DNA of 28,407 bases, from IMG/VR virus record IMGVR_UViG_3300041809_000360, positions 1 through 28,407 of that record, one strand, 5' to 3'. Made by a program: the position numbers and the translations under genes. Positions 834-22,341 of this stretch are shown here, in pieces (within the stretch, counting starts at the first letter, position 1; the number at the start of each line of letters is the position of its first letter). The notes beneath the pieces are model-generated. The model ran no database searches, was not told where the DNA came from, and was given only the letters and a program-made list of their open reading frames with translations. This DNA comes from a virus.

Positions 834-929
834 CTCCGCGGACAGGGCGCGAGCAGAAGCGAACGACACGATGGATACGCCTCCTAGTCGTCCCTGAGCT
901 ATTTTGATGGGTGGTGAGAGACCCGCACT

Positions 930-946
930 GTTCACGTTACGTGAAC
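930..946. promoter_or_regulatory. 7-bp inverted repeat upstream of the first late gene
   Basis: GTTCACG-TTA-CGTGAAC is a perfect inverted repeat with a three-base centre, located 31 bases before the ATG at 978. It could be an operator for a dimeric protein or a hairpin in the leader. It leaves the ribosome-binding site (AGAGGGA) free. Confidence 0.35.
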
Positions 947-977
947 GACGACGACAAATGAACAAGAGGGATCTCTC

Positions 978-1514
978 ATGGCGATTGGTAACCTTGGCGC
1001 CGCCCCCGGCGCGCAGCCCGCGGCCGGCCCGACCGGCGCACCCATCTGGCTCGACACCGGCCCCGCGGCCGGCTCCGCCCCTGTCGGGCAGGCGGGCAAC
1101 CCCGCACCCTACGGGTCGGTCACCTACTTCAACTCCAGCTTCGAGTCGCTGATGGCGGCGGTCTCGCGCGGCGAGGTCTCGCTGAACCAGCTCTACGCGG
1201 TAGCTGGGCTCGGCGGGGTCGGCAACGCGAACGGGAACCCGACCCTGATGCAAGCGATCAGCCAGGGCGTCCCGCAGAACGGAACGAACGGGATCGGCGT
1301 GCAGGCCGGGCCGGCCGGCGGCGCAGGCTACAACCCCGCGGTCGCGGGCGCTGGGACCGTGCTCTCCGGCAACGGCGGGCTCGGCTCTGCCGTGATGGCC
1401 GCGAGCGGCGTCAGCTCGACCAACTTCGGCGGCGCGCAGCTCGCGGACCCGAAGCAGATGGTGAACTCCGCGGCGGTCGCGCTCGCGTCGCCAGCTCAGT
1501 ACGGCGGGAACTAA
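978..1514 (+). CDS. Low-complexity 'SRG-motif' protein 1 (unknown function)
   Basis: This 178-residue protein is dominated by Gly, Ala, Pro, Asn and Ser and has no signal peptide or clear membrane span. It holds the best-defined copy of a motif that recurs in the next four genes: ESLMAAVSRGEVS at residues 56-68. Weaker copies follow at 88-99 (PTLMQAISQGVP) and 137-145 (SAVMAASGV). The C-terminus ends SPAQYGGN, resembling the Y-x-G-G/N ends of proteins 3 and 4. The start follows a strong AGAGGGA site. It is the first gene of the run leading to the tailspike, so a virion or tail role is plausible, but nothing in the sequence assigns a function. Confidence 0.7.
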   Translation: MAIGNLGAAPGAQPAAGPTGAPIWLDTGPAAGSAPVGQAGNPAPYGSVTYFNSSFESLMAAVSRGEVSLNQLYAVAGLGGVGNANGNPTLMQAISQGVPQNGTNGIGVQAGPAGGAGYNPAVAGAGTVLSGNGGLGSAVMAASGVSSTNFGGAQLADPKQMVNSAAVALASPAQYGGN

Positions 1515-1515
1515 G

Positions 1516-2037
1516 ATGACACTCTACGTCCAGCACGGCCCCGTCGTGGGCCAGCCGATGTCCCCGAGCTTCGGCGCGCAGAACGGTCTCGGCGCGACGC
1601 CAGTGATCGAGCAGCCGACCACGGCGCCGGTTGCGGGCGGGATGCAGGCGACCGGCGTCCAGATGTCGCTGCTCGAAGCGTGCTCGCGCGGGCTGATCCC
1701 GCGCAACGCGCAGCTCGCGACCATCGCCGGCCAGGCCGTGAGCGTCGGCATCAGCGCGCTCCAGGGCGACGGCGTGACGCTAGACGAGGCGTTCTCGTCC
1801 GGCAACGGCGCGCAGATAAGCCTCGGGGTGGCGGTGCCGCCGAACGCGGGCAACAACACCGCGGTGACGACTATGGGCGTCAACAATCAGATATTCGTCG
1901 AGGGTATAGCGAACGCGAACGGCGCGCTATCGACCGGGCCGGCGCAAACCAACATCGAGTCGGTGGTGAGCGCCCCGCTCGCCGGCTCGACCACGACCGC
2001 GAACGTCGGCATTCTTTCGGGAGTGTTTCAGGGATGA
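1516..2037 (+). CDS. Low-complexity 'SRG-motif' protein 2 (unknown function)
   Basis: This 173-residue paralogue-like protein starts one base after the previous stop (TAAGATG). The shared motif lies at residues 51-61 (SLLEACSRGLI) with a degenerate copy at 88-96 (TLDEAFSSG). The rest is rich in Ala, Gly, Val, Thr and Asn with alternating small/hydrophobic residues, suggesting extended or beta structure. It ends GILSGVFQG. Its stop overlaps the next start in an ATGA. There is no recognised domain. Composition and spacing match its neighbours, so all five genes are probably co-expressed at similar levels. Confidence 0.7.
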   Translation: MTLYVQHGPVVGQPMSPSFGAQNGLGATPVIEQPTTAPVAGGMQATGVQMSLLEACSRGLIPRNAQLATIAGQAVSVGISALQGDGVTLDEAFSSGNGAQISLGVAVPPNAGNNTAVTTMGVNNQIFVEGIANANGALSTGPAQTNIESVVSAPLAGSTTTANVGILSGVFQG

Positions 2038-2516
2038 CCATCTACGGGACTCCGGCGGGGACGCCGCTCAACCAGACCGGCGGGTTCCAGGGCACGCAGC
2101 CCGGCAACCCCGTACAGGCGACGCTCTCGCCCGTGAACCCTGGCGTGGGTATGTTCCCACCCAACTCGAACAACGCGAGCGGCGACTCGATAATGGCGTC
2201 CGCCTCGCGCGCGACGCTGCCACTGAACGCGCAGGGGTCGGGCTACGGCGTTACCACGCAGGTGGGCGCCGGCCCCGGCGCCTCTGGCGGGCGCACGATG
2301 GCGGAGGCGCTGTCGATTGGTGATAGGAACGGGTCCGGCGCACAGGTCGGCGTCGACAGCTTGAACAGCGACGCGAACGGCGGCCAGAGCCTCGGTGCCG
2401 GCGGCGCGAACCAAACCGAAGGTCCGACTTCGGGAGAGGGGAACCAGGCGTCTACGCAGCAGCCAGTAAACACGCTCACGCTCCAGGGCGGCGCTGTGCC
2501 GATCTACGGAGGGTAG
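2034..2516 (+). CDS. Low-complexity 'SRG-motif' protein 3 (unknown function)
   Basis: This 160-residue protein begins MTIYGTPAGTPLNQTGGFQG. The ATG at 2034 in an ATGA overlap is chosen; the frame is open further upstream, but that part is out of phase with the real gene 2. The motif copies are DSIMASASRATL at residues 51-62, where Gly is replaced by Ala, and RTMAEALSIGD at 87-97. The second half (about 95-150) is Gly/Asn/Gln/Ser-rich and probably disordered or extended. It ends AVPIYGG, like the PVYTGN end of protein 4. Function unknown. Confidence 0.7.
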   Translation: MTIYGTPAGTPLNQTGGFQGTQPGNPVQATLSPVNPGVGMFPPNSNNASGDSIMASASRATLPLNAQGSGYGVTTQVGAGPGASGGRTMAEALSIGDRNGSGAQVGVDSLNSDANGGQSLGAGGANQTEGPTSGEGNQASTQQPVNTLTLQGGAVPIYGG

Positions 2517-2519
2517 CCC

Positions 2520-2963
2520 ATGACTAACCTGTACCCCAACAGCTCTATGCAGAACACGGCCGGCGACGGCGCGGGCCAGCCCGGCGGCGCGCCTGTCGGG
2601 TCGACCATGCAAGGGAACCCGCAAGAGTCTCAGTTCCAGCCCAACGGCGTGCAGCCCCCGACGCCGCTTAACCCGGTCCAGCAGCTGCTCGGTACCCAGG
2701 TCAGCAACGGGCAGGTGCCGGCCCACACGCACCCGAACACGGTCGTGCTCGCGCAGCCCGGCACCGACTCGCTGCTCGCGCAGATGTCGCGCGGCCAGGT
2801 GATCATGGCCGACTCGACCTACGGGCAAGGCGGCTTCATACCGCAAAACGGTGGCGCCAGCCCGCAGGCCGTCACCCCGGCCGCGAACATTACCCAGCCC
2901 GTGCTCGCGCGCGTGGCGAGCGGCTTGGTCCTGCCGGCCACACCCGTCTACACGGGCAACTAA
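2520..2963 (+). CDS. Low-complexity 'SRG-motif' protein 4 (unknown function)
   Basis: This 147-residue protein has the clearest multiple motif copies: QQLLGTQVSNGQV at residues 54-66, DSLLAQMSRGQV at 83-94 and QPVLARVASGLV at 126-137, spaced roughly 30-43 residues. A Gln/Asn/Pro-rich N-terminal 50 residues precedes them. It ends TPVYTGN. The ATG follows the upstream TAG by three bases (GGAGGGTAGCCC before it gives a good ribosome-binding site). The regular repeat pattern suggests a small repeat protein or one copy per structural rung. No family is recognised. Confidence 0.7.
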   Translation: MTNLYPNSSMQNTAGDGAGQPGGAPVGSTMQGNPQESQFQPNGVQPPTPLNPVQQLLGTQVSNGQVPAHTHPNTVVLAQPGTDSLLAQMSRGQVIMADSTYGQGGFIPQNGGASPQAVTPAANITQPVLARVASGLVLPATPVYTGN

Positions 2964-3347
2964 GTGACGACGCCGACCGGGCCAGGGATACTTGTCGGCT
3001 CGCCGGTATACGTAGGCGGTACGGTGGCGAGCGCCAGCGGCGGCCAGAACCTCACGCCGTACCAGAACGTGTTCGCCCCCGCAGGGTTCGGTGGAGATAG
3101 GTGGGGTGCGAACGGCGGCGGTCAGGTTGCGGTCGGCGGCCCGTTGCCCGCGCTCGCGAACGCGGCGCGCGCCGTACGCCAAGCTGACGCTGTGTATGAC
3201 GCGAAGAATAACGTGACGGTGCAGGGCGGTATGTCGCGCGGCGCCGTCAGCACCCAGACCGCGGACCAGGTCTACGCGGACGACAGCTCGAAACAAATAT
3301 GGACCGCGGACCTAGAGTCGCCGGGCGTTGCGGATAGTCAACTGTAA
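2964..3347 (+). CDS. Low-complexity 'SRG-motif' protein 5 (unknown function)
   Basis: This 127-residue protein uses a GTG start directly after the upstream TAA. It is the most divergent member. An N-terminal GSPVYVGG (residues 12-19) recalls the C-terminal PVYTGN/PIYGG of its neighbours, and the motif copy VTVQGGMSRGAV lies at 84-95. The last 30 residues are acidic (DDSSK, ADLESPGVAD) and unlike the other four. Its TAA overlaps the ATG of the tailspike gene, so translation is probably coupled to it. It could connect this family to the adhesin, but that is inference. Confidence 0.65.
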   Translation: MTTPTGPGILVGSPVYVGGTVASASGGQNLTPYQNVFAPAGFGGDRWGANGGGQVAVGGPLPALANAARAVRQADAVYDAKNNVTVQGGMSRGAVSTQTADQVYADDSSKQIWTADLESPGVADSQL

Positions 3348-5167
3348 TGTCGCAGCAACTGATAATCACCACGCCAGCGAACAGCCAGCAGGGAGACTCT
3401 CCGAAGAGCGCGTTCGATAAGATCAACGCGAACTTCTCTGAGGTGTACAACAACATCCCGGTGCTCACCGGAGCGTATGATTTTTCCGGGGTAGATTCTG
3501 GCGCTACGAACGCTTACGTAGTTGCACTTTCTAGTTTGCTTCCAGTGCAAGCGAACCCGCCAGCGCTGGTGGCCGGACTCACTGTAAGCTTCATCCCGCT
3601 GCACGCAAATACGGGCCCGTCAACGCTGAACTTTGTTGGGGACGGCGCCGTCGCCATCGTTGGCACTACCAACGCAGCGCTAGTCGGCGCAGAACTGCAG
3701 CCGCTGATTTTCGTCACACTGAAGTATACCGGAACTGCTTGGCAGATCGTCTCTCCTGTTACGACGAACCCTACATCTAACCCGACATTCGGCTCTATCG
3801 TTGTTGGTGCTCCGACCGGCGGCAACGAGGGCGCCGGCACGGTGAACGCCACCAACGTGTTCGTGAACGGCGTAGCGGTACCAGTTACGCAGGCTGCCGT
3901 CGGCGCGTTCTTCTACCCCCAGAGCGGGGCGGAAGCGGCGGTGCCCGTTGTTCCCACCAACTATTATTATTACTACGGCGACATCCGCCGCTATGGCGCC
4001 ACGACCGCGGCGACCGACAATACGGCGGCGATCCAAGCCGCAATCAATCAAGCCGAGCAGGTCGCGGCCGCGGGCTGCGCGCCGGTGCGAATCCCATTCG
4101 GCACCTGGAAATTTATTACGAACCTTGTCGTCAATAACACGATCAGCATCATCGGCGACGCAAAGTGGGGGTCGGTGCTCGCGAAAAACGCGAACGTGGT
4201 GGGCCTCACGATTCAAGATAACGGGGCCACTTCTTATGGGCAGTGTCTGATTCAGAATCTTTCCATCAACGGCATTTTCGGCGGCGGCGACGCCTCGGTC
4301 GGCGTTTCGATCAATACCCAGGGGCACGTCGTGATGCGCGATGTCGTCGTCTCCACCCACGGCAGCCACGGGATCGAGATTCTGCAAAGCACGGTAGGGC
4401 GCTTTGACACCATCCACACCGTAAGCAATGGCGGGGACGGAATAAAATTGACCGGCTCGGGCGGCTACCAGGCCAACGCCAATATATTCACGGGCGTGGA
4501 CACCCGCGGAAACACCGGCTGGGGGATGAACTTCCTCGCCGCCAACAATAATAGCTGCTTGCAGATTGTCGCCCAGAGCAACACCGCCGGTGGCGTGCAG
4601 CTGGGCGCCTGCGAGGGCAACCGCATCGAGATCTACGGCGAGTCTAATACCGGCGTCGATCTGAATGTACTGTCGACAAATCTCGGCGGCAATTACATCC
4701 ACCTGCTCTATCAAACGACCGGATATGCCTTCGCGGGAGGCACCTACGCCTCGAACGTCGTGCTCCAAAATCGCAATGTAAGCGGCGCGCTCTATCCCGA
4801 TCAGAGCAATGTATTCGCGGACAATGTTATCTTCTCGAATCAACAGCAGACCGCCATAGTGAATGGCGTCTTCACGCTGTCGCACGCAAACTCGGTCGAG
4901 CTCGACGTGGTGCTAAGTGGCTATAGCGCGACGGGGTTGACGAAATTCAGCAATTCAACCGGCGGGTTCTACCACTACGTGCAGGCCGATAATTTTCGAG
5001 TGGCGCAAGCCGCAACCGCCGCAGCCGGCGGGAATCTTGCGCTCGGCAGCAGCACTGCGGCGAGCGCCACTACGGGCGCATCCGGCGCCTTGCCAGCCCA
5101 GGTCGCGGGCTATTTGATCGCCTATCTCGGCAGCACGGCGATCAAGATTCCCTACTACAACAATTAA
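3347..5167 (+). CDS. Tailspike with right-handed beta-helix (pectate-lyase-like fold)
   Basis: This 606-residue protein has a typical phage adhesin plan. Residues 1-45 include DSPKSAFDKINANFSEVYNN, a motif common at the N-terminus of podovirus tail fibres and spikes. About 45-205 is a beta-rich connector. At about 205-235, YYYYGDIRRYGATTAATDNT leads into IQAAINQA, the classic entry to a pectate-lyase/P22-tailspike beta-helix. Rungs with regular Gly/Asn turns continue to about 490, and a C-terminal Ala/Ser/Thr-rich domain follows. Such spikes trimerise, bind and often cleave surface polysaccharide. Catalytic residues cannot be assigned by eye. Length is near P22 gp9 (about 667). The central helix reads as less GC-rich than the flanking genes, as expected for an exchangeable host-range module. 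Confidence 0.88.
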   Translation: MSQQLIITTPANSQQGDSPKSAFDKINANFSEVYNNIPVLTGAYDFSGVDSGATNAYVVALSSLLPVQANPPALVAGLTVSFIPLHANTGPSTLNFVGDGAVAIVGTTNAALVGAELQPLIFVTLKYTGTAWQIVSPVTTNPTSNPTFGSIVVGAPTGGNEGAGTVNATNVFVNGVAVPVTQAAVGAFFYPQSGAEAAVPVVPTNYYYYYGDIRRYGATTAATDNTAAIQAAINQAEQVAAAGCAPVRIPFGTWKFITNLVVNNTISIIGDAKWGSVLAKNANVVGLTIQDNGATSYGQCLIQNLSINGIFGGGDASVGVSINTQGHVVMRDVVVSTHGSHGIEILQSTVGRFDTIHTVSNGGDGIKLTGSGGYQANANIFTGVDTRGNTGWGMNFLAANNNSCLQIVAQSNTAGGVQLGACEGNRIEIYGESNTGVDLNVLSTNLGGNYIHLLYQTTGYAFAGGTYASNVVLQNRNVSGALYPDQSNVFADNVIFSNQQQTAIVNGVFTLSHANSVELDVVLSGYSATGLTKFSNSTGGFYHYVQADNFRVAQAATAAAGGNLALGSSTAASATTGASGALPAQVAGYLIAYLGSTAIKIPYYNN

Positions 5168-5311: not shown

Positions 5312-5797
5312 ATGACATTTTTGGGCGTCTTCCGAGATGATTTTTACAACGCAGTCTCAGCGTTGGCGCAGTCGCAGTACACTGCCACCACACAGCTCAC
5401 GGGTACCGTGCTAGCTGCGGCGGCTATGGCTGGTGCGGGCGATTGCTACGTCACCGCGAGCGGTACCGCCGCTACGGCGATCACTACCGACTCCGCGATC
5501 AACATCATCGCGCAGATTCAGATCGCGGTGGCGACGGCATACAAGCAAGGTCTCGGATCGTTCGCGGCCGGCGTCAACCCGCCGCCCGGCGTCCCGAACC
5601 TGTTCAACATGACCTGGACGTTGACGATCAACAACCAGAACTCTGGCACGATGACGCTCACGGGCGGAACCGGAGTCACGATTACTGGCACCAACACCAT
5701 CGCGACCGTTACGTCGCGCGTGTTCGTGGTCACGATAAACTCACCGACCACGGTCACCATGCAGAGCGTTGGCGCGTTCCTGAGCACCGGCGCGTAA
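5312..5797 (+). CDS. Putative virion protein (beta-rich, unknown)
   Basis: This 161-residue protein begins MTFLGVFRDDFYNAVSALAQ. Residues 25-85 are Ala/Thr-rich and probably helical. The second half (about 90-155) is Thr/Val/Asn-rich with alternating residues (WTLTINNQ, GTMTLTGGTG, VFVVTINSP), suggesting a small beta-sandwich. A GAGGA lies nine bases before the ATG. The family is unknown to me. Composition and position just after the tailspike favour a minor structural or tail-associated role. A 144-base gap with a hairpin separates it from the tailspike, so it may be expressed at a different level. Confidence 0.65.
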   Translation: MTFLGVFRDDFYNAVSALAQSQYTATTQLTGTVLAAAAMAGAGDCYVTASGTAATAITTDSAINIIAQIQIAVATAYKQGLGSFAAGVNPPPGVPNLFNMTWTLTINNQNSGTMTLTGGTGVTITGTNTIATVTSRVFVVTINSPTTVTMQSVGAFLSTGA

Positions 5798-6556: not shown

Positions 6557-6877
6557 ATGTCTGTGGACACAGTTTTTAAGCCTACCGGCCCCACCGTTCT
6601 AGTTGTCAACGCCGCAACGTCGTTGGGTACCCAGAACACGGGCGGCGTGTACATGTTCCGCGTCATCAATCTCTCTGCCTCACAGCAGAGGTTCTCGTGG
6701 GGGCGCACCGCCGCCGCCGTGACGGCGCTGGGCGGCGCCGCGCCCGTAGCGGCCGGCACACCGACCACCATCACGATGCTGGCCAACAGCGTGGAGACCT
6801 TCGAGATCCCGTGCGACTCGTTCGCTATCGCAAGCTCTGCGTCAGGGTTTGAGTTCACGCCGGGGCAAGGTTCGTGA
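6557..6877 (+). CDS. Putative small virion protein (beta-rich)
   Basis: This 106-residue protein begins MSVDTVFKPTGPTVLVVNAA. Alternating hydrophobic residues, the segment RVINLSASQQRFSWGRTAAA near residues 33-52, and later TTITMLANSVETFEI suggest a compact beta-sandwich. Similar small proteins sit near fibre genes in podoviruses, which favours a structural role, but I cannot name the family. GGGAG lies 11 bases before the ATG. Its stop overlaps the GTG of the Gly-rich fibre by four bases (GTGA), so the two are probably made together and could be partners. Confidence 0.6.
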   Translation: MSVDTVFKPTGPTVLVVNAATSLGTQNTGGVYMFRVINLSASQQRFSWGRTAAAVTALGGAAPVAAGTPTTITMLANSVETFEIPCDSFAIASSASGFEFTPGQGS

Positions 6878-7890
6878 GTCTCCGTTTCGCTGGTGGTGGA
6901 ACAGGGTCCGGCACCGTCTCGCTTATTCAGAACACTGACGGCTCGATCACCGTCACGAACGGCGGTGGCCCTACGGTCACGCTGTCTGGTACCGAGCCCA
7001 CGAACTTACAGACGTTCACCTCTAGCGGTACATGGACAAAGCCAGCCGGGACGCCAAAAATAACCACGGTTTTGATAATAGGCGCAGGGGGCGGCGGTGG
7101 TGGTGGCGCGCAGCTGGCTTCTGGAACAGCTTCTAGCGGCGGCGCTGGTGGCGGTGGCGCTACGCGGTATGAACGTAGTTTTCCGACTTCCATTTTAGGT
7201 AGTACGGAAATTGTCACGGTAGCGGCAGGCGCCGCAGGCGGGGCAGCAGGATCGTCGAGCGCAGGCGGCAACGGCAGTGATGGGGGTACTTCCTCTTTTG
7301 GAAGTTGGGTGCAGGCACCCGGTGGCGGAGGGGGGACAGGGGGCGCAAGTGCTGCGAATTCAACCGGAGGCGGTGGAGGCGGCACGCAAGGAGGCGGCGC
7401 TGGACCCGCTGCCGGATTCGCTGCCGGATCCGCTGGTACAGCTGGAGCTTCGCCCGCATTACCCACAGGGCCAATGTGTGGCGGTGCCGGCTCCGGGGGT
7501 GTTTCAGGTGCCGCCGGTTCAGTCAACACTTCGACTGCTTTCGATGGTTCGGGGGGAGGCGGTGCGGGAGGCGGCATCGCGGCTGCGCCTACCGCATTTG
7601 CCGGCGGCGGCGGCGGATGGACAGGATCGGCGGCGGCGAATATTCAGCGGGGTACGGCCGGCGCCATAGCTACGGCGGGCAATTCGCCGACATTCGTCTC
7701 CGGATACTTCGACGCTGAAGCGGGTGGCGGGGGTGGGGGATCGGCTATAACAGGTGCAGCCGGGACCGGAGGCGCAGGCATAAATGGCTCTGGCGGTGGC
7801 GGCGGCGGTTCGGCGGTGGTAGGGCTTTCGACGGCAGCCGCTGGCGCCGCAGGCGGCAACGGCATTGTAGTTGTCACCACGTATTTCTAG
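6874..7890 (+). CDS. Glycine-rich tail fibre/adhesin (polyglycine domain)
   Basis: This 338-residue protein (GTG start in a GTGA overlap) opens with a short beta region. At about residues 47-60 it carries TFTSSGTWTKPAG, followed by TTVLIIGAGGGGGGG, the hallmark entry of the glycine-rich domain found in many phage fibres. From about 70 to 325 it is a long array of Gly/Ala/Ser tracts broken by Asn, Thr and short hydrophobic stretches. It closes with GGNGIVVVTTYF, a typical final beta-strand. In T4-like S16 gp38 such tracts form packed polyglycine-II helices that present receptor-binding loops. The gene probably makes a tip adhesin or fibre. The GC-rich repeats make it prone to slippage and recombination. 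Frames within it on other strands are compositional shadows. Confidence 0.8.
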   Translation: MSLRFAGGGTGSGTVSLIQNTDGSITVTNGGGPTVTLSGTEPTNLQTFTSSGTWTKPAGTPKITTVLIIGAGGGGGGGAQLASGTASSGGAGGGGATRYERSFPTSILGSTEIVTVAAGAAGGAAGSSSAGGNGSDGGTSSFGSWVQAPGGGGGTGGASAANSTGGGGGGTQGGGAGPAAGFAAGSAGTAGASPALPTGPMCGGAGSGGVSGAAGSVNTSTAFDGSGGGGAGGGIAAAPTAFAGGGGGWTGSAAANIQRGTAGAIATAGNSPTFVSGYFDAEAGGGGGGSAITGAAGTGGAGINGSGGGGGGSAVVGLSTAAAGAAGGNGIVVVTTYF

Positions 7891-9646: not shown

Positions 9647-9666
9647 GTAAGGTGAGAGGTACGAAA

Positions 9667-10014
9667 ATGTCTAAGATAGATTTTAGTCAGCGGCTGCTCG
9701 ACGATCTGATCGCGGTGGCGCTCCTGGACAAGGCGGAAGGAGTAATTAAACTCCCCGACTGGCAAAGAACGCTCCGAGGAGAGGTGGTCGCGGCCGGACC
9801 TGGACGAATGCTCCAGTACGGCGAACGCGCACCTATGGAGACGAAGGTCGGCGATATAGTCGCTTTCGCCGCCACCGCAGGAATGGATGCTGACTTTGGT
9901 GTTGGGAAGAAAGTACGCCTGATGCGGGACACCGACGTCGACGCTATCATCGGTCCGGTGAAAGAGGAATACTCGCGCGTCATAGAGAGGCAGACTGAGG
10001 TGGCGCCGCTATGA
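9667..10014 (+). CDS. GroES-like co-chaperonin (Cpn10 fold)
   Basis: This 115-residue protein starts at ATG 9667, seven bases after GAGAGG. From residue 38 the sequence RGEVVAAGPGRMLQYGERAP, then METKVGDIVAF (58-68), follows E. coli GroES 'RGEVLAVGNGRILENG...VKVGDIVIF' almost position by position. KKVRLMRDTDVDAI (81-94) matches the GroES C-terminal 'EEVLIMSESDILAI'. Residues 20-35 (LDKAEGVIKLPDWQRT) stand where the GroES mobile loop lies, and VIKL replaces the IVL tripeptide that docks on GroEL. By analogy with T4 gp31, it probably caps host GroEL to help fold a virion protein such as coat. The stop overlaps the next gene (ATGA), itself GroES-like. Confidence 0.82.
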   Translation: MSKIDFSQRLLDDLIAVALLDKAEGVIKLPDWQRTLRGEVVAAGPGRMLQYGERAPMETKVGDIVAFAATAGMDADFGVGKKVRLMRDTDVDAIIGPVKEEYSRVIERQTEVAPL

Positions 10015-10553
10015 TACTCACAGAGGAGCTAGAAGACGTCGGCAAACGCGTGCGCGTCCTACGTGACCGCGTGCTCGTAAAGATCCTACCCTACGTTCAT
10101 CCGACGCTGGTGACGCCAGGGATCGAGATAAATAAGGGCGTTGTGATCGCGGTCGGCTACGGCCGGCGCCAGCGGCGCAAGGTCGCGTTCAAGCAAGAGA
10201 TTAGCGACGGGCCGCCCGTGCTCAGCGCCGACGGCCGCGTGATGAAGTTCGCGCCGAGCAAGCTCTCGGGCAAGACCCTCTGGTTTGAAGATGGTGCTGA
10301 GACAGGGGCCATAATTCCGATCCAAGTGCAGCCGGGCGACGTCGTAGAATTCAGTTTCCGCAACATCACGCTCGTCGACTTCGACAAGGTCGGCTTCCCA
10401 GGCATCGGCGACCTCGCCTTCGTCTGGCAAAAGGCGATCTACTCCATCGACCCAGACGAGTCACTCGACGCGTGCCTGATGTGGCAGCAGAGCGCCGGCT
10501 ACGACCGTAACGGAAATTTTATGTCAGGAAGCGAGGACTGGCACCGCGCCTAG
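10011..10553 (+). CDS. Second, divergent GroES-like protein
   Basis: This 180-residue protein overlaps the first GroES-like gene by four bases. Residues 13-50 (VRVLRDRVLVKILPYVHPTL, then VTPGIEINKGVVIAVGYG) match the N-terminal GroES pattern 'x-R-P-L-x-D-R-V-x-V-K ... G-G-I ... G-x-V-x-A-V-G-x-G'. VQPGDVVEFSF at 106-116 matches 'VKVGDIVIF'. An insert of about 55 residues (51-105) and a 60-residue C-terminal extension make it nearly twice the normal length of about 97. The canonical IVL mobile loop is not obvious (TPGIEI is the nearest). It may form mixed rings with the first protein, or be a Cpn10-fold virion protein that no longer acts as a co-chaperonin. Confidence 0.62.
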   Translation: MILTEELEDVGKRVRVLRDRVLVKILPYVHPTLVTPGIEINKGVVIAVGYGRRQRRKVAFKQEISDGPPVLSADGRVMKFAPSKLSGKTLWFEDGAETGAIIPIQVQPGDVVEFSFRNITLVDFDKVGFPGIGDLAFVWQKAIYSIDPDESLDACLMWQQSAGYDRNGNFMSGSEDWHRA

Positions 10554-10556
10554 CGT

Positions 10557-11672
10557 ATGGGACAGAATGTACCGGACGCAGAACAGCTCGGCAGTATGGA
10601 GAAGGCGGCGACACCCTTCGCGCCGCAGCGCTCGTGGGGTAGGTGGCCGAAGATAAAGCCGGAGAGCGTCGCGCCGTTGCGTGACGGTAAGCCGGACATG
10701 TACAACCACCGCCCGACGCGATTCGTATCACTCGCTGAGGCGAAGGCGCGCGGCTGGAAACACTTCTGGACCGGCGAGTCATGCGTCACCGGGCACCGCG
10801 CCGCGCGCTACGTTAAGAACGGCAGCATCTGCATTGACTGCTACCGCATCGAGCAGGGGCTCCTGCCAGTATACGGCAAAGGTGTACCGGAACTTGAGGC
10901 AGCCAGACGACGCAAGTACACCCAGAAAGACACTGCGCCGGCCGGGCCACCTGTACCGAACACCTCCGAGAAGCGTTTTTTGGAGAAGTACGCGGAGCTA
11001 AAAGACTTCACGGAGGCGGCCGACGCGCTCGGGCGCTCCGAGTCTGAATTTTTGGCGATTTTGAGCTGGAACACGACGTTCCGCGACGCGGTGAACCGCC
11101 TAGAAGAGAGCCTCGGCATCGCGCGCACGCAAAAAGTTACCGACGAGTTCGACTGGACGTACGACAAGAGGCGCAGCTTCTTGCTCACGTATGCGAACAC
11201 CGCGGACATGAAGCAGGCACTGCGCTCGGTAGGGGCCACCAACGTGCAGTTTCATCGGGAACTGTCTAACAACGCAGAGTTTCAGCACGAGTTTGACGAT
11301 GCCGCGCAGGTAGCGCGAAACGTGTTCGACCACGCAGCGTCCGCGGCCGCCACGAAAGGTGACGCGCGCATGCTCGGACGTATCGCGGCGAATCTTTTCC
11401 CGGAAAAGTTCGGCGAGAACATGAAAGTTGACTTGAACGTCAAGCAGAACCTCTCACTGGACCAGGCACATGCGCAAATTACCCACCTGCTATCAAGATT
11501 TGATCGACAGGGTCTACTCCCCGCTGCCGGAGTCTCTGACGAACCTATTGAAGAAGCAGAATATCAGCTCGCTGAGCCTACAAGAGTCGACGAAACTGAT
11601 ACAGATCCTGAGCCAGCGAGCGCAGACGCAGGATCAGACCCAAATAGTGACCTGGTTTCAGGATCCGACTGA
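10557..11672 (+). CDS. terS: Terminase small-subunit-like DNA-binding protein
   Basis: This 371-residue protein begins three bases after the previous stop. Residues 64-96 hold ARGWKHFWTGESCVTGHRAA and NGSICIDC, giving a Cys76-x3-His80-x11-Cys92-x2-Cys95 zinc site like that of HNH-type phage proteins, but no HNH catalytic core follows. Two helix-turn-helix-like repeats lie at about 150-185 (FTEAADALGRSESEFLAILS) and 216-250, typical of small terminases that recognise the packaging site. Residues 270-290 (ARMLGRIAANLFPEKFGENM) are also typical of this class. The C-terminus (325-371) is acidic. Its last 203 bases overlap the large-terminase frame. Family assignment rests on HTH layout and position directly before terL. 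Confidence 0.68.
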   Translation: MGQNVPDAEQLGSMEKAATPFAPQRSWGRWPKIKPESVAPLRDGKPDMYNHRPTRFVSLAEAKARGWKHFWTGESCVTGHRAARYVKNGSICIDCYRIEQGLLPVYGKGVPELEAARRRKYTQKDTAPAGPPVPNTSEKRFLEKYAELKDFTEAADALGRSESEFLAILSWNTTFRDAVNRLEESLGIARTQKVTDEFDWTYDKRRSFLLTYANTADMKQALRSVGATNVQFHRELSNNAEFQHEFDDAAQVARNVFDHAASAAATKGDARMLGRIAANLFPEKFGENMKVDLNVKQNLSLDQAHAQITHLLSRFDRQGLLPAAGVSDEPIEEAEYQLAEPTRVDETDTDPEPASADAGSDPNSDLVSGSD

Positions 11673-12381
11673 CCACCCGGCGCTGAAGAACTGCCCGCTA
11701 GGCCGGAAACACTACCCTAAGCAGATGCAGTTCTTCGCTTTGGAGGCGGTCGACGACGAGATAGCACTATTCGGTGGAAACCGGACAGGGAAGACACATT
11801 GCGGGTGCTTCGCGGACACTTTGCACCTCACTGGGCTCTACCCGGACTGGTGGCCCGGACGAAAGTACAGCCGCCCCATCGATATGTGGGTGGCGACCGA
11901 CACCGCGAAGAATACGCGCGATATTTTGCAAGAAAAATTCTGCGGGAAGCCGGGCGTCGAGCAAGCGTACGGTACCGGGATGATTCCTGGCGACCTTCTG
12001 GTGCGGCGGACGGTGAAGCACGGGCTAGCCGACGCGTTCGAGTCGGTCTTCGTGCGGCACGTATCCGGCGGCATCTCTACGCTGCAGTTTAAGTCGTATG
12101 ACCAGGGACGTGAAGCGTTCCAGGGTACGCGTCAGGACCGAATACACCTGGACGAAGAGCCGAAGCTGGAGATATACGCAGAGTGCTCGCTGCGCCTCAT
12201 GAGTACGGTCCCAGGAGAGCCGAACGGCTCGCTGGTACTGACAGAGACCCCGATGCTGGGAGTTTCTGACTTGATGATCAAGTTCATGCCGGACCTGTCA
12301 CCTGAACCCGACGCTATGCCGGCGCAGAGCTGGGACGCTGAGGAAGAGGAGGTAGTCGTCGATGAAGGCGGTATTCCTTGA
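11470..12381 (+). CDS. terL: Large terminase, ATPase domain (first part of split TerL)
   Basis: This 303-residue frame contains the packaging-motor ATPase. It has the adenine-side pattern YPKQMQFFALEA at 82-93, Walker A GGNRTGKT at 102-109 and Walker B with catalytic Glu in RIHLDEEP (about 224-231). The coupling motif LTETPMLG lies at 257-264. The frame then ends in an acidic run (EEEEVVVDEGGIP) without a nuclease domain, which lies in the next frame. The ATG at 11470 gives a 203-base overlap with terS and has only a weak ribosome-binding site. A later start is possible, but residues 20-60 look helical as in other TerL proteins. The final codons are CCT TGA at 12376-12381, where a +1 slip would join the nuclease frame. 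Confidence 0.85.
   Translation: MRKLPTCYQDLIDRVYSPLPESLTNLLKKQNISSLSLQESTKLIQILSQRAQTQDQTQIVTWFQDPTDHPALKNCPLGRKHYPKQMQFFALEAVDDEIALFGGNRTGKTHCGCFADTLHLTGLYPDWWPGRKYSRPIDMWVATDTAKNTRDILQEKFCGKPGVEQAYGTGMIPGDLLVRRTVKHGLADAFESVFVRHVSGGISTLQFKSYDQGREAFQGTRQDRIHLDEEPKLEIYAECSLRLMSTVPGEPNGSLVLTETPMLGVSDLMIKFMPDLSPEPDAMPAQSWDAEEEEVVVDEGGIP
12347..12352 (+). promoter_or_regulatory. Consensus ribosome-binding site for the TerL nuclease frame
   Basis: AGGAGG lies inside the 3' end of the ATPase gene, nine bases before the ATG at 12362, and is part of a longer purine run (GAGGAAGAGGAGG). It supports independent translation of the nuclease part. The same bases also encode the acidic Glu run of the ATPase protein. 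Confidence 0.65.
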
Positions 12382-13132
12382 TATGGACGACGTACCACAC
12401 CTGAGCGATATAGAGAAGAAGAAGATTCTCGCCGGCATACCGTCGTGGCAGCTGCAGGCGCGTAAGTCAGGGATACCCGGGCACGGCGTTGGCGCGATCT
12501 ACCCGATCCCCGAAGACGTAATGCTGATCCAGCCGTTCGATATCCCGATGCATTGGCCGCGCTCCTACGGGATGGACCCGGGCTGGAACTGCACCGCGGT
12601 AGTCTGGTTCGCGTGGGATATCGACAACGGTTTCAAAGACGCCGCCGGCAACCAACGGTACCCTGCAGTTGCGTACGACGAATACTATCGGGGCCAGGCG
12701 GACCCGGCCGTGCATGTCGCGGCAATCAACCGCCGCGGTCCGTGGATTCACGGTGTCATTGACCCCGCCGCACAGAAGGCTCGTGGCACGGACGGCGAGC
12801 TGTTGATAGATACGTACTGTAATCTCGGCCTGAAGGTTACGAAGGCTGATAACACGGTCGTGACCGGGCTGGTGCAGACCTGGGACATGCTCTCGACGCA
12901 GCAGCTGCGTATCTTCAACACGCTGACGAACTGGCGCAAAGAAGTGCGCCTGTACCGCCGCGACGAGAAGGGAAATATAATAAAAAAGAATGACCACCTA
13001 ATGGACGCCACACGCTACAACGTGATGAGTGGGTTCGAGGTGGCGAAGGCTCCTCCGGCCAGCGATGGTGGCGTACCCTGGTTCAGTTGGGCCCCTGAGA
13101 TGGCGACGCCGGGTGGTGTATGGAGCGGGTGA
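12362..13132 (+). CDS. terL: Large terminase, nuclease domain (second part of split TerL)
   Basis: This 256-residue frame begins MKAVFLDMDDVPHLSDIEKK. MDDVPHL is the linker normally found mid-protein in intact TerL, followed by QARKSGIPGHGVGAIYPI. The RNase H-like nuclease signatures are all present: GMDPGW with Asp72, VIDPAAQ with Asp134, and DHLMDATRY with Asp211/Asp215 as metal ligands. It cuts the concatemer at packaging start and headful end. It overlaps the ATPase frame by 20 bases and is +1 relative to it. A TAG in its own frame at 12353-12355 means no read-in from further upstream. It may be a separate subunit, the product of a frameshift, or one gene broken by an indel or sequence error. 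Confidence 0.85.
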   Translation: MKAVFLDMDDVPHLSDIEKKKILAGIPSWQLQARKSGIPGHGVGAIYPIPEDVMLIQPFDIPMHWPRSYGMDPGWNCTAVVWFAWDIDNGFKDAAGNQRYPAVAYDEYYRGQADPAVHVAAINRRGPWIHGVIDPAAQKARGTDGELLIDTYCNLGLKVTKADNTVVTGLVQTWDMLSTQQLRIFNTLTNWRKEVRLYRRDEKGNIIKKNDHLMDATRYNVMSGFEVAKAPPASDGGVPWFSWAPEMATPGGVWSG

Positions 13133-19857: not shown

Positions 19858-21401
19858 TGGCTCCAGCGAAACCGACCACCGTACCGCTCCCGCTCGCCTC
19901 ATACCAGCTCGCCGACCTACGCGCCGGCTCGAAGCGGTTGATCGGCTGCTACCCGGAGCCGGCGCCGCAGACGCAGCCTGACGACACCAAAGACCAGCAG
20001 CCGGCGTGTCTGCGGCGCTGGCCTGGGCTCTCTACGTTCACTCCGAGCGGGCTGACCAACCCGCTGCGCGGCATGTGGGAGATGGCTGGCGTCGTGTACG
20101 CTGTAGTAGGGTTCGATCTCTACACAGTAAGCAGCGCGGGCGCGTTCACCCTCGTGCCAGGTTCGGCCAGCGGCATCATCGGCAACGGGTTCGTTCGCAT
20201 GACGGACAACGGCGCGTGCCTGGTGGTGCTGGTGCCTGGTACCGACGTATGCTACACGTACACACCGTTCTCTGGCGGGGGTGGCGTGCAGCAGCTGACC
20301 AGCGCGTTCTTCCTGGCGCTTGGTGGTGCAATTGATTGCTGGTTCGTCGACACCTACATCGTGTTCCTGGCGAACAATAATAACGGTAACGGGTCGTACA
20401 CGTTCTTCAACGATGACGGGCGGCAGGTGTCCGGCAACGCGCAGATTACCTTCACTACCGCCGCGTCGTTCAACCGGCAGTTCGGTACCGACCCGTTCTA
20501 CGGGATGTGCGTCGACCACCGCGAGATCTTGATGTTCGGCTCGCGCTCGTCGGAAGGGTTCGTCAACACGGGCAACCCTACCGGCACGCCGTTCAGCGCG
20601 GCGTCGGACACGTACATGCCGTACGGCGTGCACCCGATGTGTCCCTACAGCATCGCGCTCCAAGACAACTCGGTCTTCTGGGTCTGCAATGACCTAACCG
20701 TGCGGCGACGCGAGGGACAGACCCCGACCCGCATCTCGACAGCTGGCGTCGAGGCCGTACTATCGAACGCGAACAAGCAAGGGCTCTTGCTCGGTACGTA
20801 CGCCCTATCGTCGCCAGCCGGCGGCCCTACTTGGAACGGGCACCCATTCTATGTTCTGACGATACCGCTTGCGGAGCGCACGCTCGTTTACGATTGCGTG
20901 ACGCAGCAGTGGTTCGACCTGGTGTCGGTGCTCAACGGCCAAGAGGTGCAGTACCGCGGCATCGCCTACCTGAATGCGTTCGGCAAACAACTTGTCGGCG
21001 ACTCAGAGAGCGGCACCATAGGGTACCTGGACGACACCGTCCAGAATGAGTTCGGGAACACCAACGCGCCGACAGTGTGCGCGTTCACTACGCAGGCGAT
21101 CTACAGCCAGAACAACCGCCAGACCGTGCGGCGCGTCGAGGCCGTAGTTACGGCCGGCGCTGGGCCGACGCCGGGCGTCGCGCCGCGCATCAGCCTGCTG
21201 CTTTCGGACAACTGGGGGCAAACGTTCGATGTATCTGGCGACGATTCGCAGACGCTGGGGCTGCCTGGCGACACGGACAACCGTGCGGTATGGTGGAACC
21301 TCGGGCAGCACTATAGTCTGGTGCTGCAGTTCCGTGTTACGGACGCGTCGACTACGTTTACTGTCGACGTGACCGCGATGGTTGAACCTTGCAAGTGGTA
21401 G
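19857..21401 (+). CDS. Packaged-DNA stabilisation protein, P22 gp10-like
   Basis: This 514-residue protein starts at ATG 19857 in a TAATG overlap. The open frame continues upstream, but that part overlaps the gp4-like gene out of phase and is ignored. MAPAKPTTVPLPLASYQLAD and the following RAGSKRLIGCYPEP are the usual N-terminus of the gp10 family. It is beta-rich throughout, with repeated aromatic/Gly patterns (WFVDTYIVFLANNNNGNGSY; DNSVFWVCNDLTVRRREGQT), fitting the beta-propeller-like tail hub of P22 gp10 (472 residues). It plugs or extends the portal/gp4 ring and keeps packaged DNA in the head. It ends in DVTAMVEPCKW, and the next gene starts five bases on. Confidence 0.82.
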   Translation: MAPAKPTTVPLPLASYQLADLRAGSKRLIGCYPEPAPQTQPDDTKDQQPACLRRWPGLSTFTPSGLTNPLRGMWEMAGVVYAVVGFDLYTVSSAGAFTLVPGSASGIIGNGFVRMTDNGACLVVLVPGTDVCYTYTPFSGGGGVQQLTSAFFLALGGAIDCWFVDTYIVFLANNNNGNGSYTFFNDDGRQVSGNAQITFTTAASFNRQFGTDPFYGMCVDHREILMFGSRSSEGFVNTGNPTGTPFSAASDTYMPYGVHPMCPYSIALQDNSVFWVCNDLTVRRREGQTPTRISTAGVEAVLSNANKQGLLLGTYALSSPAGGPTWNGHPFYVLTIPLAERTLVYDCVTQQWFDLVSVLNGQEVQYRGIAYLNAFGKQLVGDSESGTIGYLDDTVQNEFGNTNAPTVCAFTTQAIYSQNNRQTVRRVEAVVTAGAGPTPGVAPRISLLLSDNWGQTFDVSGDDSQTLGLPGDTDNRAVWWNLGQHYSLVLQFRVTDASTTFTVDVTAMVEPCKW

Positions 21402-21405
21402 TAGT

Positions 21406-22341
21406 ATGGCGACCCCGTTAAAGTCAAAGCCAGGGCTGACCGGCGCCACCGCGCTCTCGATCCCGAAGACTTGGGACCCGAAGTGGTTCCGTGGGTTCAT
21501 CAGCAACATGCTGAAGGGTGCCGACGTTCGCAATGCTATCGGAGTGGACGGTATCACTATCACCGGCAACATTTCGAGTCCGTACGCGACGATTGGTTTC
21601 ACAGGTGCCCCCTCGGCGAACGTAACCCCTGACACGCACCCCGCTTCTCCAAACACATCTAATGATGAGTTTGAATTTGGCTCATCGCTCGATCTGACTG
21701 GCGCCCGCGGTGCAGGCGCAGTAGCCTGGTCCTGGCTCAACCAAGGCGTATCGACCGCGAACGTCACGTCAGGTGCTCTAGTCCTCAATGCAGCTACGGG
21801 TGGTATTAGTAGCGTAGCCATCGTTGAACAGTCAATTGTTAACCCCAGCGCCGCGTGGGACTTTCGCTGCAAGTTGCTAGGGATAGATTGGTATAATGTG
21901 CAGACCGGCTCAGATAGCCGTGGCGGGATGTGGGTAGGGGACAACACAGGCGGCGGCGGCCTGAGCTATACGATGTCGTCGTACTACGATTCCGGTGCAG
22001 GCTATCTGCGATGGAATGTTGCACGGTGGAGTTCCCCAACTACTGCAGTTTCTGCGCTCTTTACGTCGAGTACGAGCAGTAGCGTACTGTTGGATCAGTG
22101 GGCCGGCGTCATGCCGATGACCTCTAACGGGCAGGCCGTGTACTATCGGATCACGTTCGATGGGACTACGCTACGTTGGTACGTTTCGCAGGACGGCGTT
22201 GTCTACGCTCTCGCTACACAAGAAGCAGTCGGCGCGTACCTAATCACTAACCCCGCAGGGATAGGTCTATTCGCTTCGGAAGCTAACAATAGTGCACAGC
22301 AGGCATCTGCTGTGTTCGATTGGTTTAGGCGCTATGCGTAA
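21406..22341 (+). CDS. Concanavalin-fold (lectin/LamG-like) tail protein
   Basis: The ATG at 21406 gives 311 residues; the TTG at 21382 is inside the previous gene and is rejected. Residues 1-60 (MATPLKSKPGLTGATALSIP, then WDPKWFRGFISNMLKGADVR) look like an attachment segment. From about 85 to the end is a jelly-roll domain of the concanavalin A-like/DUF1349 type: a signature YYRITFDGTTLRWYVSQDGV, then GIGLFASE and a final AVFDWFRRYA. Such domains bind carbohydrate. P22 encodes the tail needle gp26 at this place; no trimeric coiled-coil needle is seen here. This protein may therefore be a tail-tip or receptor-binding component. Direct evidence for virion location is lacking. Confidence 0.65.
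   Translation: MATPLKSKPGLTGATALSIPKTWDPKWFRGFISNMLKGADVRNAIGVDGITITGNISSPYATIGFTGAPSANVTPDTHPASPNTSNDEFEFGSSLDLTGARGAGAVAWSWLNQGVSTANVTSGALVLNAATGGISSVAIVEQSIVNPSAAWDFRCKLLGIDWYNVQTGSDSRGGMWVGDNTGGGGLSYTMSSYYDSGAGYLRWNVARWSSPTTAVSALFTSSTSSSVLLDQWAGVMPMTSNGQAVYYRITFDGTTLRWYVSQDGVVYALATQEAVGAYLITNPAGIGLFASEANNSAQQASAVFDWFRRYA

What the first reader, a model, noticed from the sequence alone, without database searches (positions are those of the whole stretch)
978..3347. Five tandem genes share a novel-looking short motif, S-L-[LM]-x3-S-R-G-x-[VIL]
Five consecutive, tightly coupled genes (127-178 residues) encode Gly/Ala/Pro/Asn-rich proteins with no domain I recognise. Each carries a core motif: ESLMAAVSRGEV (protein 1, 56-67), SLLEACSRGLI (2, 51-61), DSIMASASRATL (3, 51-62), DSLLAQMSRGQV (4, 83-94) and VTVQGGMSRGAV (5, 84-95). 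Degenerate extra copies lie in proteins 1-4; protein 4 has three, 30-43 residues apart. Proteins 1, 3 and 4 end in YGGN, PIYGG and PVYTGN, and protein 5 has GSPVYVGG near its N-terminus. This suggests duplication and divergence of one small repeat protein directly upstream of the tailspike. Possible roles, all inference: fibre/collar building blocks, a tailspike adaptor stack, or decoy/decoration proteins. I know of no described family with this layout.
Basis: partly seen in the sequence, partly recalled or inferred. Interest (0 to 1): 0.75.

Follow-up and report, generated by a model that had tools for sequence, protein, structure and literature searches.

The report
Duplicated phage anchor-like genes beside tailspike
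A soil phage and its uncultured relatives carry a conserved row of small duplicated genes, of a family not described before, whose last member links to interchangeable host-binding proteins, so the set probably fastens adhesins to the virus particle.

Summary
Genes P1-P5 (978-3347) are tightly coupled and recur in the same order in 22 of 50 related contigs (window included; many others are truncated). The motif is not a composition artefact: a matrix from three families finds the fourth at the right place (p<=1/301 in most orthologs), and among 732 ORFs of three genomes only P1-P4 score highly. Profile comparison shows P1, P2 and P3 are paralogs. P4 shares the motif and C-terminus. P5 shares a degenerate motif, in register in 19 of 35 P5 relatives. 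No member matches PHROGs, Pfam (above cut-off), PDB or 50,697 phage records.

P5 is the informative one. Its GGDxWGANGGG domain is the C-terminal end of larger proteins with lectin (LamG), PASTA or propeller-like domains in relatives. In the seven phages where a tailspike gene follows, and only there, P5 ends in WTADxESPxVADSQL. Neighbour G7 folds like T4-gp10/CBA120-TSP4 adaptor domains.

Best reading: a virion anchor set for exchangeable receptor-binding proteins, P5 being the swap point. Homology and modularity are shown; virion location and docking are inferred. Capsid decoration (Hoc-like) is the main rival. The sequence family is new; the way of working resembles known tailspike adaptors.

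The parts
978..1514 (+). P1, 178 aa, two motif copies, C-terminus AQYGGN
   Evidence: orthologs and motif; C-termini
1143..1178 (+). P1 main motif ESLMAAVSRGEV (residues 56-67)
   Evidence: p=1/301 in all 15 orthologs
1239..1274 (+). P1 second copy PTLMQAISQGVP (residues 88-99), the most conserved stretch of P1
1516..2037 (+). P2, 173 aa, paralog of P1 and P3, C-terminus GVFQG
   Evidence: AF2 model
1663..1710 (+). P2 main motif MSLLEACSRGLIPRNA (residues 50-65); helix 52-57 in the model
1774..1806 (+). P2 second copy VTLDEAFSSGN (residues 87-97); helix 89-95 in the model
2034..2516 (+). P3, 160 aa (overlaps the P2 stop by 4 bases), C-terminus PIYGG
2184..2231 (+). P3 main motif DSIMASASRATLPLNA (residues 51-66)
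2292..2321 (+). P3 second copy RTMAEALSIG (residues 87-96)
   Evidence: sequence
2520..2963 (+). P4, 147 aa, shares motif and C-terminus (VYTGN) only
2682..2717 (+). P4 degenerate copy QLLGTQVSNGQV (residues 55-66)
   Evidence: not significant alone
2766..2813 (+). P4 main motif DSLLAQMSRGQVIMAD (residues 83-98)
2895..2933 (+). P4 degenerate copy QPVLARVASGLVL (residues 126-138)
   Evidence: not significant alone
2964..3347 (+). P5, 127 aa, bare form of a C-terminal domain that carries lectin/PASTA/propeller domains in relatives
3090..3122 (+). P5 core GGDRWGANGGG (residues 43-53)
   Evidence: W, G, G, G invariant in 35 relatives
3213..3248 (+). P5 degenerate motif VTVQGGMSRGAV (residues 84-95)
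   Evidence: in register with the motif of P5 relatives
3261..3344 (+). P5 C-terminal tail ADQVYADDSSKQIWTADLESPGVADSQL, found only where a tailspike gene follows
3347..5167 (+). Tailspike, 606 aa, pectate-lyase-type beta-helix (PF12708)
3347..3454 (+). Tailspike N-terminal 36 residues, conserved although the rest is not; candidate docking peptide
5312..5797 (+). G7, 161 aa, conserved neighbour; XD-like adaptor fold

Best explanation
P1-P5 are a set of small paralogous virion proteins that anchor and space exchangeable receptor-binding proteins on a P22-like podovirus. Each carries a short amphipathic helix capped by S-x-G, usually twice about 30 residues apart, and P1-P4 end in an aromatic-x-Gly strand; this module is the docking part. 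P5 is the swap point: its anchor domain either carries a fused lectin/PASTA/propeller domain, or ends in a tail that holds the N-terminal 36 residues of a separate tailspike, or is bare. Translational coupling keeps the subunits in proportion. Shown: homology of P1-P3, shared motif, conserved order, modular P5, tail/tailspike association. Inferred: presence in the virion, docking by the motif, binding of tailspike to P5.
For: Conserved order P1-P2-P3-P4-P5-G7 in 22 contigs with gene gaps of -4 to +6 bases in most. Paralogy P1-P3 against column-shuffled controls. Motif tests. P5 fused to LamG, PASTA, BNR-like domains. P5 tail present in 7 of 7 phages with the downstream tailspike and in none of the roughly 29 other P5 loci; the state changes at least 4 times on the P4 tree, P5 tail and tailspike going together in 4 of 4 independent pairs; closest pairs share P4 at 91-94% but P5 at 35-38%. 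G7, next to the cassette, models at pLDDT 82.6; its best PDB matches (Z 5-7) are a capsid spike, tailspikes, CBA120 TSP4, T4 gp9 and gp10, and in L142 G7 is the N-terminus of a tail-fibre-like protein. In L138 a P5 domain ends a protein that directly follows a head/packaging structural gene and a tail-fibre gene. P22-like coat, portal and gp10-like head closure.
Against: No virion proteomics or experiment. Single-chain AF2 of P2 is poor (pLDDT 52), so the 'docking module' has no reliable structure. P5 tail and tailspike start overlap in the DNA, so plain linkage could explain their co-transfer; the sign test on 4 pairs gives only p=0.125. L119/L120 and L138 have P5 with no detectable P1-P4, so P1-P4 are not needed for P5 in those phages. 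Most relatives have no tailspike at this place. Capsid versus tail is not decided; the top G7 match is a capsid spike and all Z values are below 8.
Confidence: 0.5

Rival explanations
1. Capsid decoration set: P1-P5 are outer-head proteins; P5-type proteins display lectin, PASTA or propeller domains from the capsid surface, as Hoc of T4 or pb10 of T5 do.
For: LamG/PASTA/propeller display on a small anchor is what adhesive decoration proteins look like (PMC7602432). Best single PDB match of neighbour G7 is a capsid spike. In L129, L130 and L139 G7 lies just after the coat gene.
Against: A pectate-lyase tailspike with a conserved N-terminal peptide is the next gene in seven phages. Most other G7 matches are tailspike/baseplate adaptors. 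P5 of L138 sits beside tail-fibre genes.
Confidence: 0.22
2. Non-virion morphogenesis factors: assembly chaperones or scaffolding helpers for the tailspike and fibres.
For: Small, Gly/Ala/Pro/Asn-rich, low-confidence folds, located just before adhesin genes.
Against: P1-P4 are kept when the tailspike is absent. P5 is covalently fused to binding domains in relatives, which makes sense for a displayed protein, not a chaperone.
Confidence: 0.12
3. The motif is a lure: Gly/Ala-rich sequences with a helix-capping S-x-G that arose independently; only gene order is conserved.
For: Individual extra copies are not above shuffles; P4 and P5 align with P1-P3 only over the motif.
Against: Leave-one-out motif test and 14-bit gap to all other ORFs; P1-P3 align over 40-140 columns above every column shuffle.
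Confidence: 0.08
4. Distant relatives of plectin repeats (PF00681) that act as cytolinker-like repeats.
For: 13 of 24 P2 members match PF00681 weakly, best E 0.004.
Against: All below the curated cut-off; the match covers 19 of 39 positions; the same search rings in 10 of 14 control genomes; no PDB match.
Confidence: 0.02

Closest known systems
Anchor-branched and adapter receptor-binding systems of podoviruses (K1-5 gp37, G7C gp66/gp63.1, KP32 viruses)
   Same: A conserved virion-side adaptor with T4gp10-like fold and a second receptor-binding protein attached through a short conserved N-terminal peptide (PMC6872550); here tailspike residues 1-36 are conserved and a gp10/XD-like protein (G7) is adjacent.
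   Different: P1-P5 show no sequence match to these; four to five tandem small paralogs with a shared two-helix motif and an anchor at the C-terminus (P5) are not part of those systems as described in that paper.
CBA120 / Ackermannviridae branched tailspike complex (TSP1-4)
   Same: XD domains organise several tailspikes and tailspike genes are swapped as modules (PMC8825819, PMC11414711); G7 matches TSP4 at Z 5.7-6.3.
   Different: CBA120 carries XD domains inside tailspikes; here the XD-like G7 is a separate small protein and P1-P5 are extra.
Hoc-type adhesive decoration proteins (T4 Hoc, T5 pb10, N4 gp17, phi29 gp8.5)
   Same: Small capsid-binding part plus displayed binding domains used for adhesion (PMC7602432); P5 with LamG/PASTA fits this way of working.
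   Different: No sequence match; capsid location not shown; coupled to a tailspike gene in seven phages.
Plectin repeat PF00681
   Same: Sequence likeness over 19 positions of the helix (E 0.017 for P2)
   Different: Below cut-off; unspecific in control genomes.

Membership tests
Plectin repeat PF00681 | Score over the curated cut-off of 20.5 bits | tested here: not met
   15.4-16.4 bits at best; 10 of 14 control genomes ring at the same level
Any PHROG family (phage protein families) | HMM match to P1-P5 | tested here: not met
   No family for P1-P5 at E<0.1; two chance-level hits at 0.25 and 0.33
Podovirus adapter / anchor-branched RBP system | gp10-like (XD) adaptor protein in the receptor-binding locus | tested here: inconclusive
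   G7 AF2 model pLDDT 82.6; VIA Z 5.1-7.2 to gp10, gp9, TSP4, tailspike and capsid spike, all below 8
Podovirus adapter / anchor-branched RBP system | Short conserved N-terminal peptide on an otherwise variable tailspike | tested here: met
   Residues 1-36 shared (61.8-80.6% in L003, L009, L020), no further blastp match reported over the rest; N-termini in seven phages
Podovirus adapter / anchor-branched RBP system | Physical binding of the peptide to the adaptor and presence in the virion | not testable with these tools
   needs protein work
Hoc-type decoration protein | Displayed binding domain(s) joined to a small virion-binding part | tested here: inconclusive
   P5 relatives carry LamG, PASTA, BNR-like domains; that the P5 part binds the virion is inferred
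Hoc-type decoration protein | Location on the capsid | not testable with these tools
   no virion data

The most novel reading that the evidence does not exclude
A previously undescribed virion display system: tandem paralogs built on a two-helix docking module with an aromatic-x-Gly C-terminus form a shared platform whose last subunit is a plug, swapped repeatedly between a tailspike-holding form and forms carrying fused lectin, PASTA or propeller domains.
Probability: 0.35. Interest if true: 0.65.

Novelty: new variant of a known kind. Interest (0 to 1): 0.5.

Why it matters
If right, it adds a new family of anchor proteins to phage receptor-binding apparatus, found in uncultured phages and absent from the phage records searched, and it marks P5 as the point where host-binding modules are exchanged. 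The tail/tailspike pairing gives a concrete, testable docking pair, and the P5 domain offers a sequence tag for finding adhesins in unannotated phage genomes.

Tried and rejected
Phage records: blastn of 900-3400 and tblastn of P1, P2, P4 and G7 found nothing. PHROG, Pfam, PDB sequence searches found no relative. Plectin repeat: considered because of PF00681 hits in P2, rejected after control genomes rang equally. Fold search with the P2 model: no PDB match with Z of 2 or more, no viral match; the model is too weak to interpret. Ribosome-binding-site origin of the Gly-rich C-termini: considered because the codons lie just before the next start, rejected because the ending stays where the next gene is far away. 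A strictly linear stack was dropped because P5 exists without detectable P1-P4 in L119/L120 and L138. Literature searches found no paper on PASTA-bearing phage fibres of this kind and none on plectin repeats in phages. Host: genome contigs gave one MAG contig binned as Solirubrobacterales, which may be a misbinned phage, so no host is claimed.

Full report
What is there. The window is a 28.4 kb IMG/VR fragment of a P22-like podovirus: P22-type portal (PF16510, E 1.7e-146), P22 coat (PF11651, E 1.9e-24), scaffold, gp10-like head closure and DNA-ejection genes. The five genes are at the coordinates given and are coupled: P1-P2 one base apart, P2-P3 overlapping by four, P3-P4 three bases, P4-P5 none, P5-tailspike overlapping. 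The same tight gaps recur in most relatives.

Relatives. Protein and profile scans of IMG/VR brought in relatives and one MAG contig. Iterative HMMs found P1-P2-P3-P4-P5-G7 in this order in 22 of 50 distinct contigs, window included; partial sets include contigs cut at an end, L035 without P2, and contigs with P5+G7 or G7 alone. Two longer relatives of 61.0 and 59.2 kb show the cassette upstream of the terminase-portal-coat block as in the window.

Is the motif real? A 16-column matrix built from three of the families was used to scan the fourth. It finds the reported site in all P1, P3 and P4 orthologs and 14 of 15 P2 orthologs, nearly always at the lowest p the test allows (1/301). Across 732 ORFs of three genomes the P1-P4 genes score 29.7-47.8 bits and everything else 15.4 or less. 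For P5 the window site alone is marginal (p about 0.013-0.02), but in the P5 family the best site falls in that same column in 19 of 35 domains against a shuffled maximum of 6, with a second cluster about 30 columns upstream.

Are they related? Profile-profile comparison gives P1-P3 94.5%, P2-P3 95.5%, P1-P2 48-70% probability, above all 60 column-shuffled controls; G7 serves as an unrelated control. P4-P1 (24%), P4-P5 (22%) and P1-P5 (12%) lie above the shuffles but align over the motif region or weakly. Two P5 nulls contain outliers of 133-135 that look like gap artefacts, so P5 values are rough. P1, P2 and P3 end in [YF]-x-G(-G/N) and P4 mostly in YTGN/T; the ending stays where the next gene is 183-807 bases away, so it is not merely a ribosome-binding site. 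AF2 of P2 is poor (pLDDT 52) but puts its better-predicted residues (blocks 51-80) on a helix at the motif, with a strand, a second helix at the second copy and a C-terminal strand.

P5 is a module. In L034 and L047 the P5 domain ends a protein with LamG and PASTA domains, in L012 and L028 with PASTA, in L018 with a BNR/sortilin-like propeller, in L103 and L138 with LamG+PASTA. In seven phages P5 is short and ends in WTADxESPxVADSQL; in all seven a large gene follows whose N-terminus reads like MTQQxIVTTPANSGQGDSPKSAFDKINANF. None of the other P5 loci has this tail or this gene. On the P4 tree the tailspike state changes at least four times, forced by well supported branches, and the P5 tail changes with it in 4 of 4 independent pairs, although four pairs cannot reach significance (p 0.125). 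W and L115 share P4 at 91% but P5 at 38%; L100 and L106 share P4 at 94% but P5 at 35%. So the locus is a recombination point. The tail and the tailspike start overlap in the DNA, hence linkage alone could make them travel together; functional docking is an inference.

Neighbour G7. It models well (pLDDT 82.6). Of its best PDB matches, Z 5.1-7.2, most are phage adhesin or adaptor parts: Pa223 capsid spike, Solidus gp83 tailspike, CBA120 TSP4, Klebsiella phage KP1 baseplate, T4 gp9 and the T4 baseplate entry. The values are below 8, so this is a lead. In L142 G7 is the N-terminal domain of a 717-residue protein with tail-fibre PHROG hits.

How it likely works. The locus reads as a receptor-binding module: a constant part (P1-P4, G7) and a variable part (P5 extension or tailspike). 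The simplest mechanism is that the shared helix module docks the small proteins to the virion or to each other, and P5 offers the attachment for the host-binding domain. Known systems that work in a similar way are the podovirus adapter and anchor-branched systems, in which a second receptor-binding protein attaches by a short conserved N-terminal peptide to a gp10-like adaptor (PMC6872550), and the CBA120 complex (PMC8825819). The alternative of adhesive decoration proteins (PMC7602432) stays open because nothing here fixes the place on the virion.

Verdict. A real, new protein family with a plausible but untested role. It is a new variant of a known kind (virion adaptors for exchangeable receptor-binding proteins), not a new principle as far as shown.

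Noticed in passing
window 11470-12381 and 12362-13132: The large terminase is split into two ORFs, ATPase half (PF03237) and RNase H-like half (PF17289); the same split occurs in G001 and G003, so it is a fixed trait and not a sequencing error.
   Followed up: partly
window 9652-10014 and 10011-10553: Two adjacent GroES-like (Cpn10) genes, the second divergent and below the Pfam cut-off, just upstream of the terminase genes.
   Followed up: partly
window 21382-22341: 319-residue protein after the gp10-like gene: in G001 and G003 only the first 75-77 residues are conserved, so it looks like a second receptor-binding slot with an N-terminal anchor.
   Followed up: no
window 6874-7890: Glycine-rich protein resembling PF21722, just below its cut-off; possibly another fibre or adhesin part.
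   Followed up: no
L137 4525-5481 and 5490-5903; L124 2-229: Divergent motif-bearing proteins; the 318-residue one has about 240 residues before a motif region and ends in PPVFGG, suggesting that P2/P3-like modules can also carry extra domains.
   Followed up: partly
L120 988-1275 and 1275-1682: Two tandem small genes related to each other (66% over the first 35 residues) upstream of a long P5 protein; possibly a remote version of the cassette.
   Followed up: partly
L128 8001-8480 and 10846-11382; L142 2231-4384: G7 is duplicated in L128 and forms the N-terminus of a 717-residue fibre-like protein in L142.
   Followed up: no
L070 (PLES01000005.1): Cassette on a MAG contig binned as Solirubrobacterales from a bog; host or misbinned phage not resolved.
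   Followed up: no
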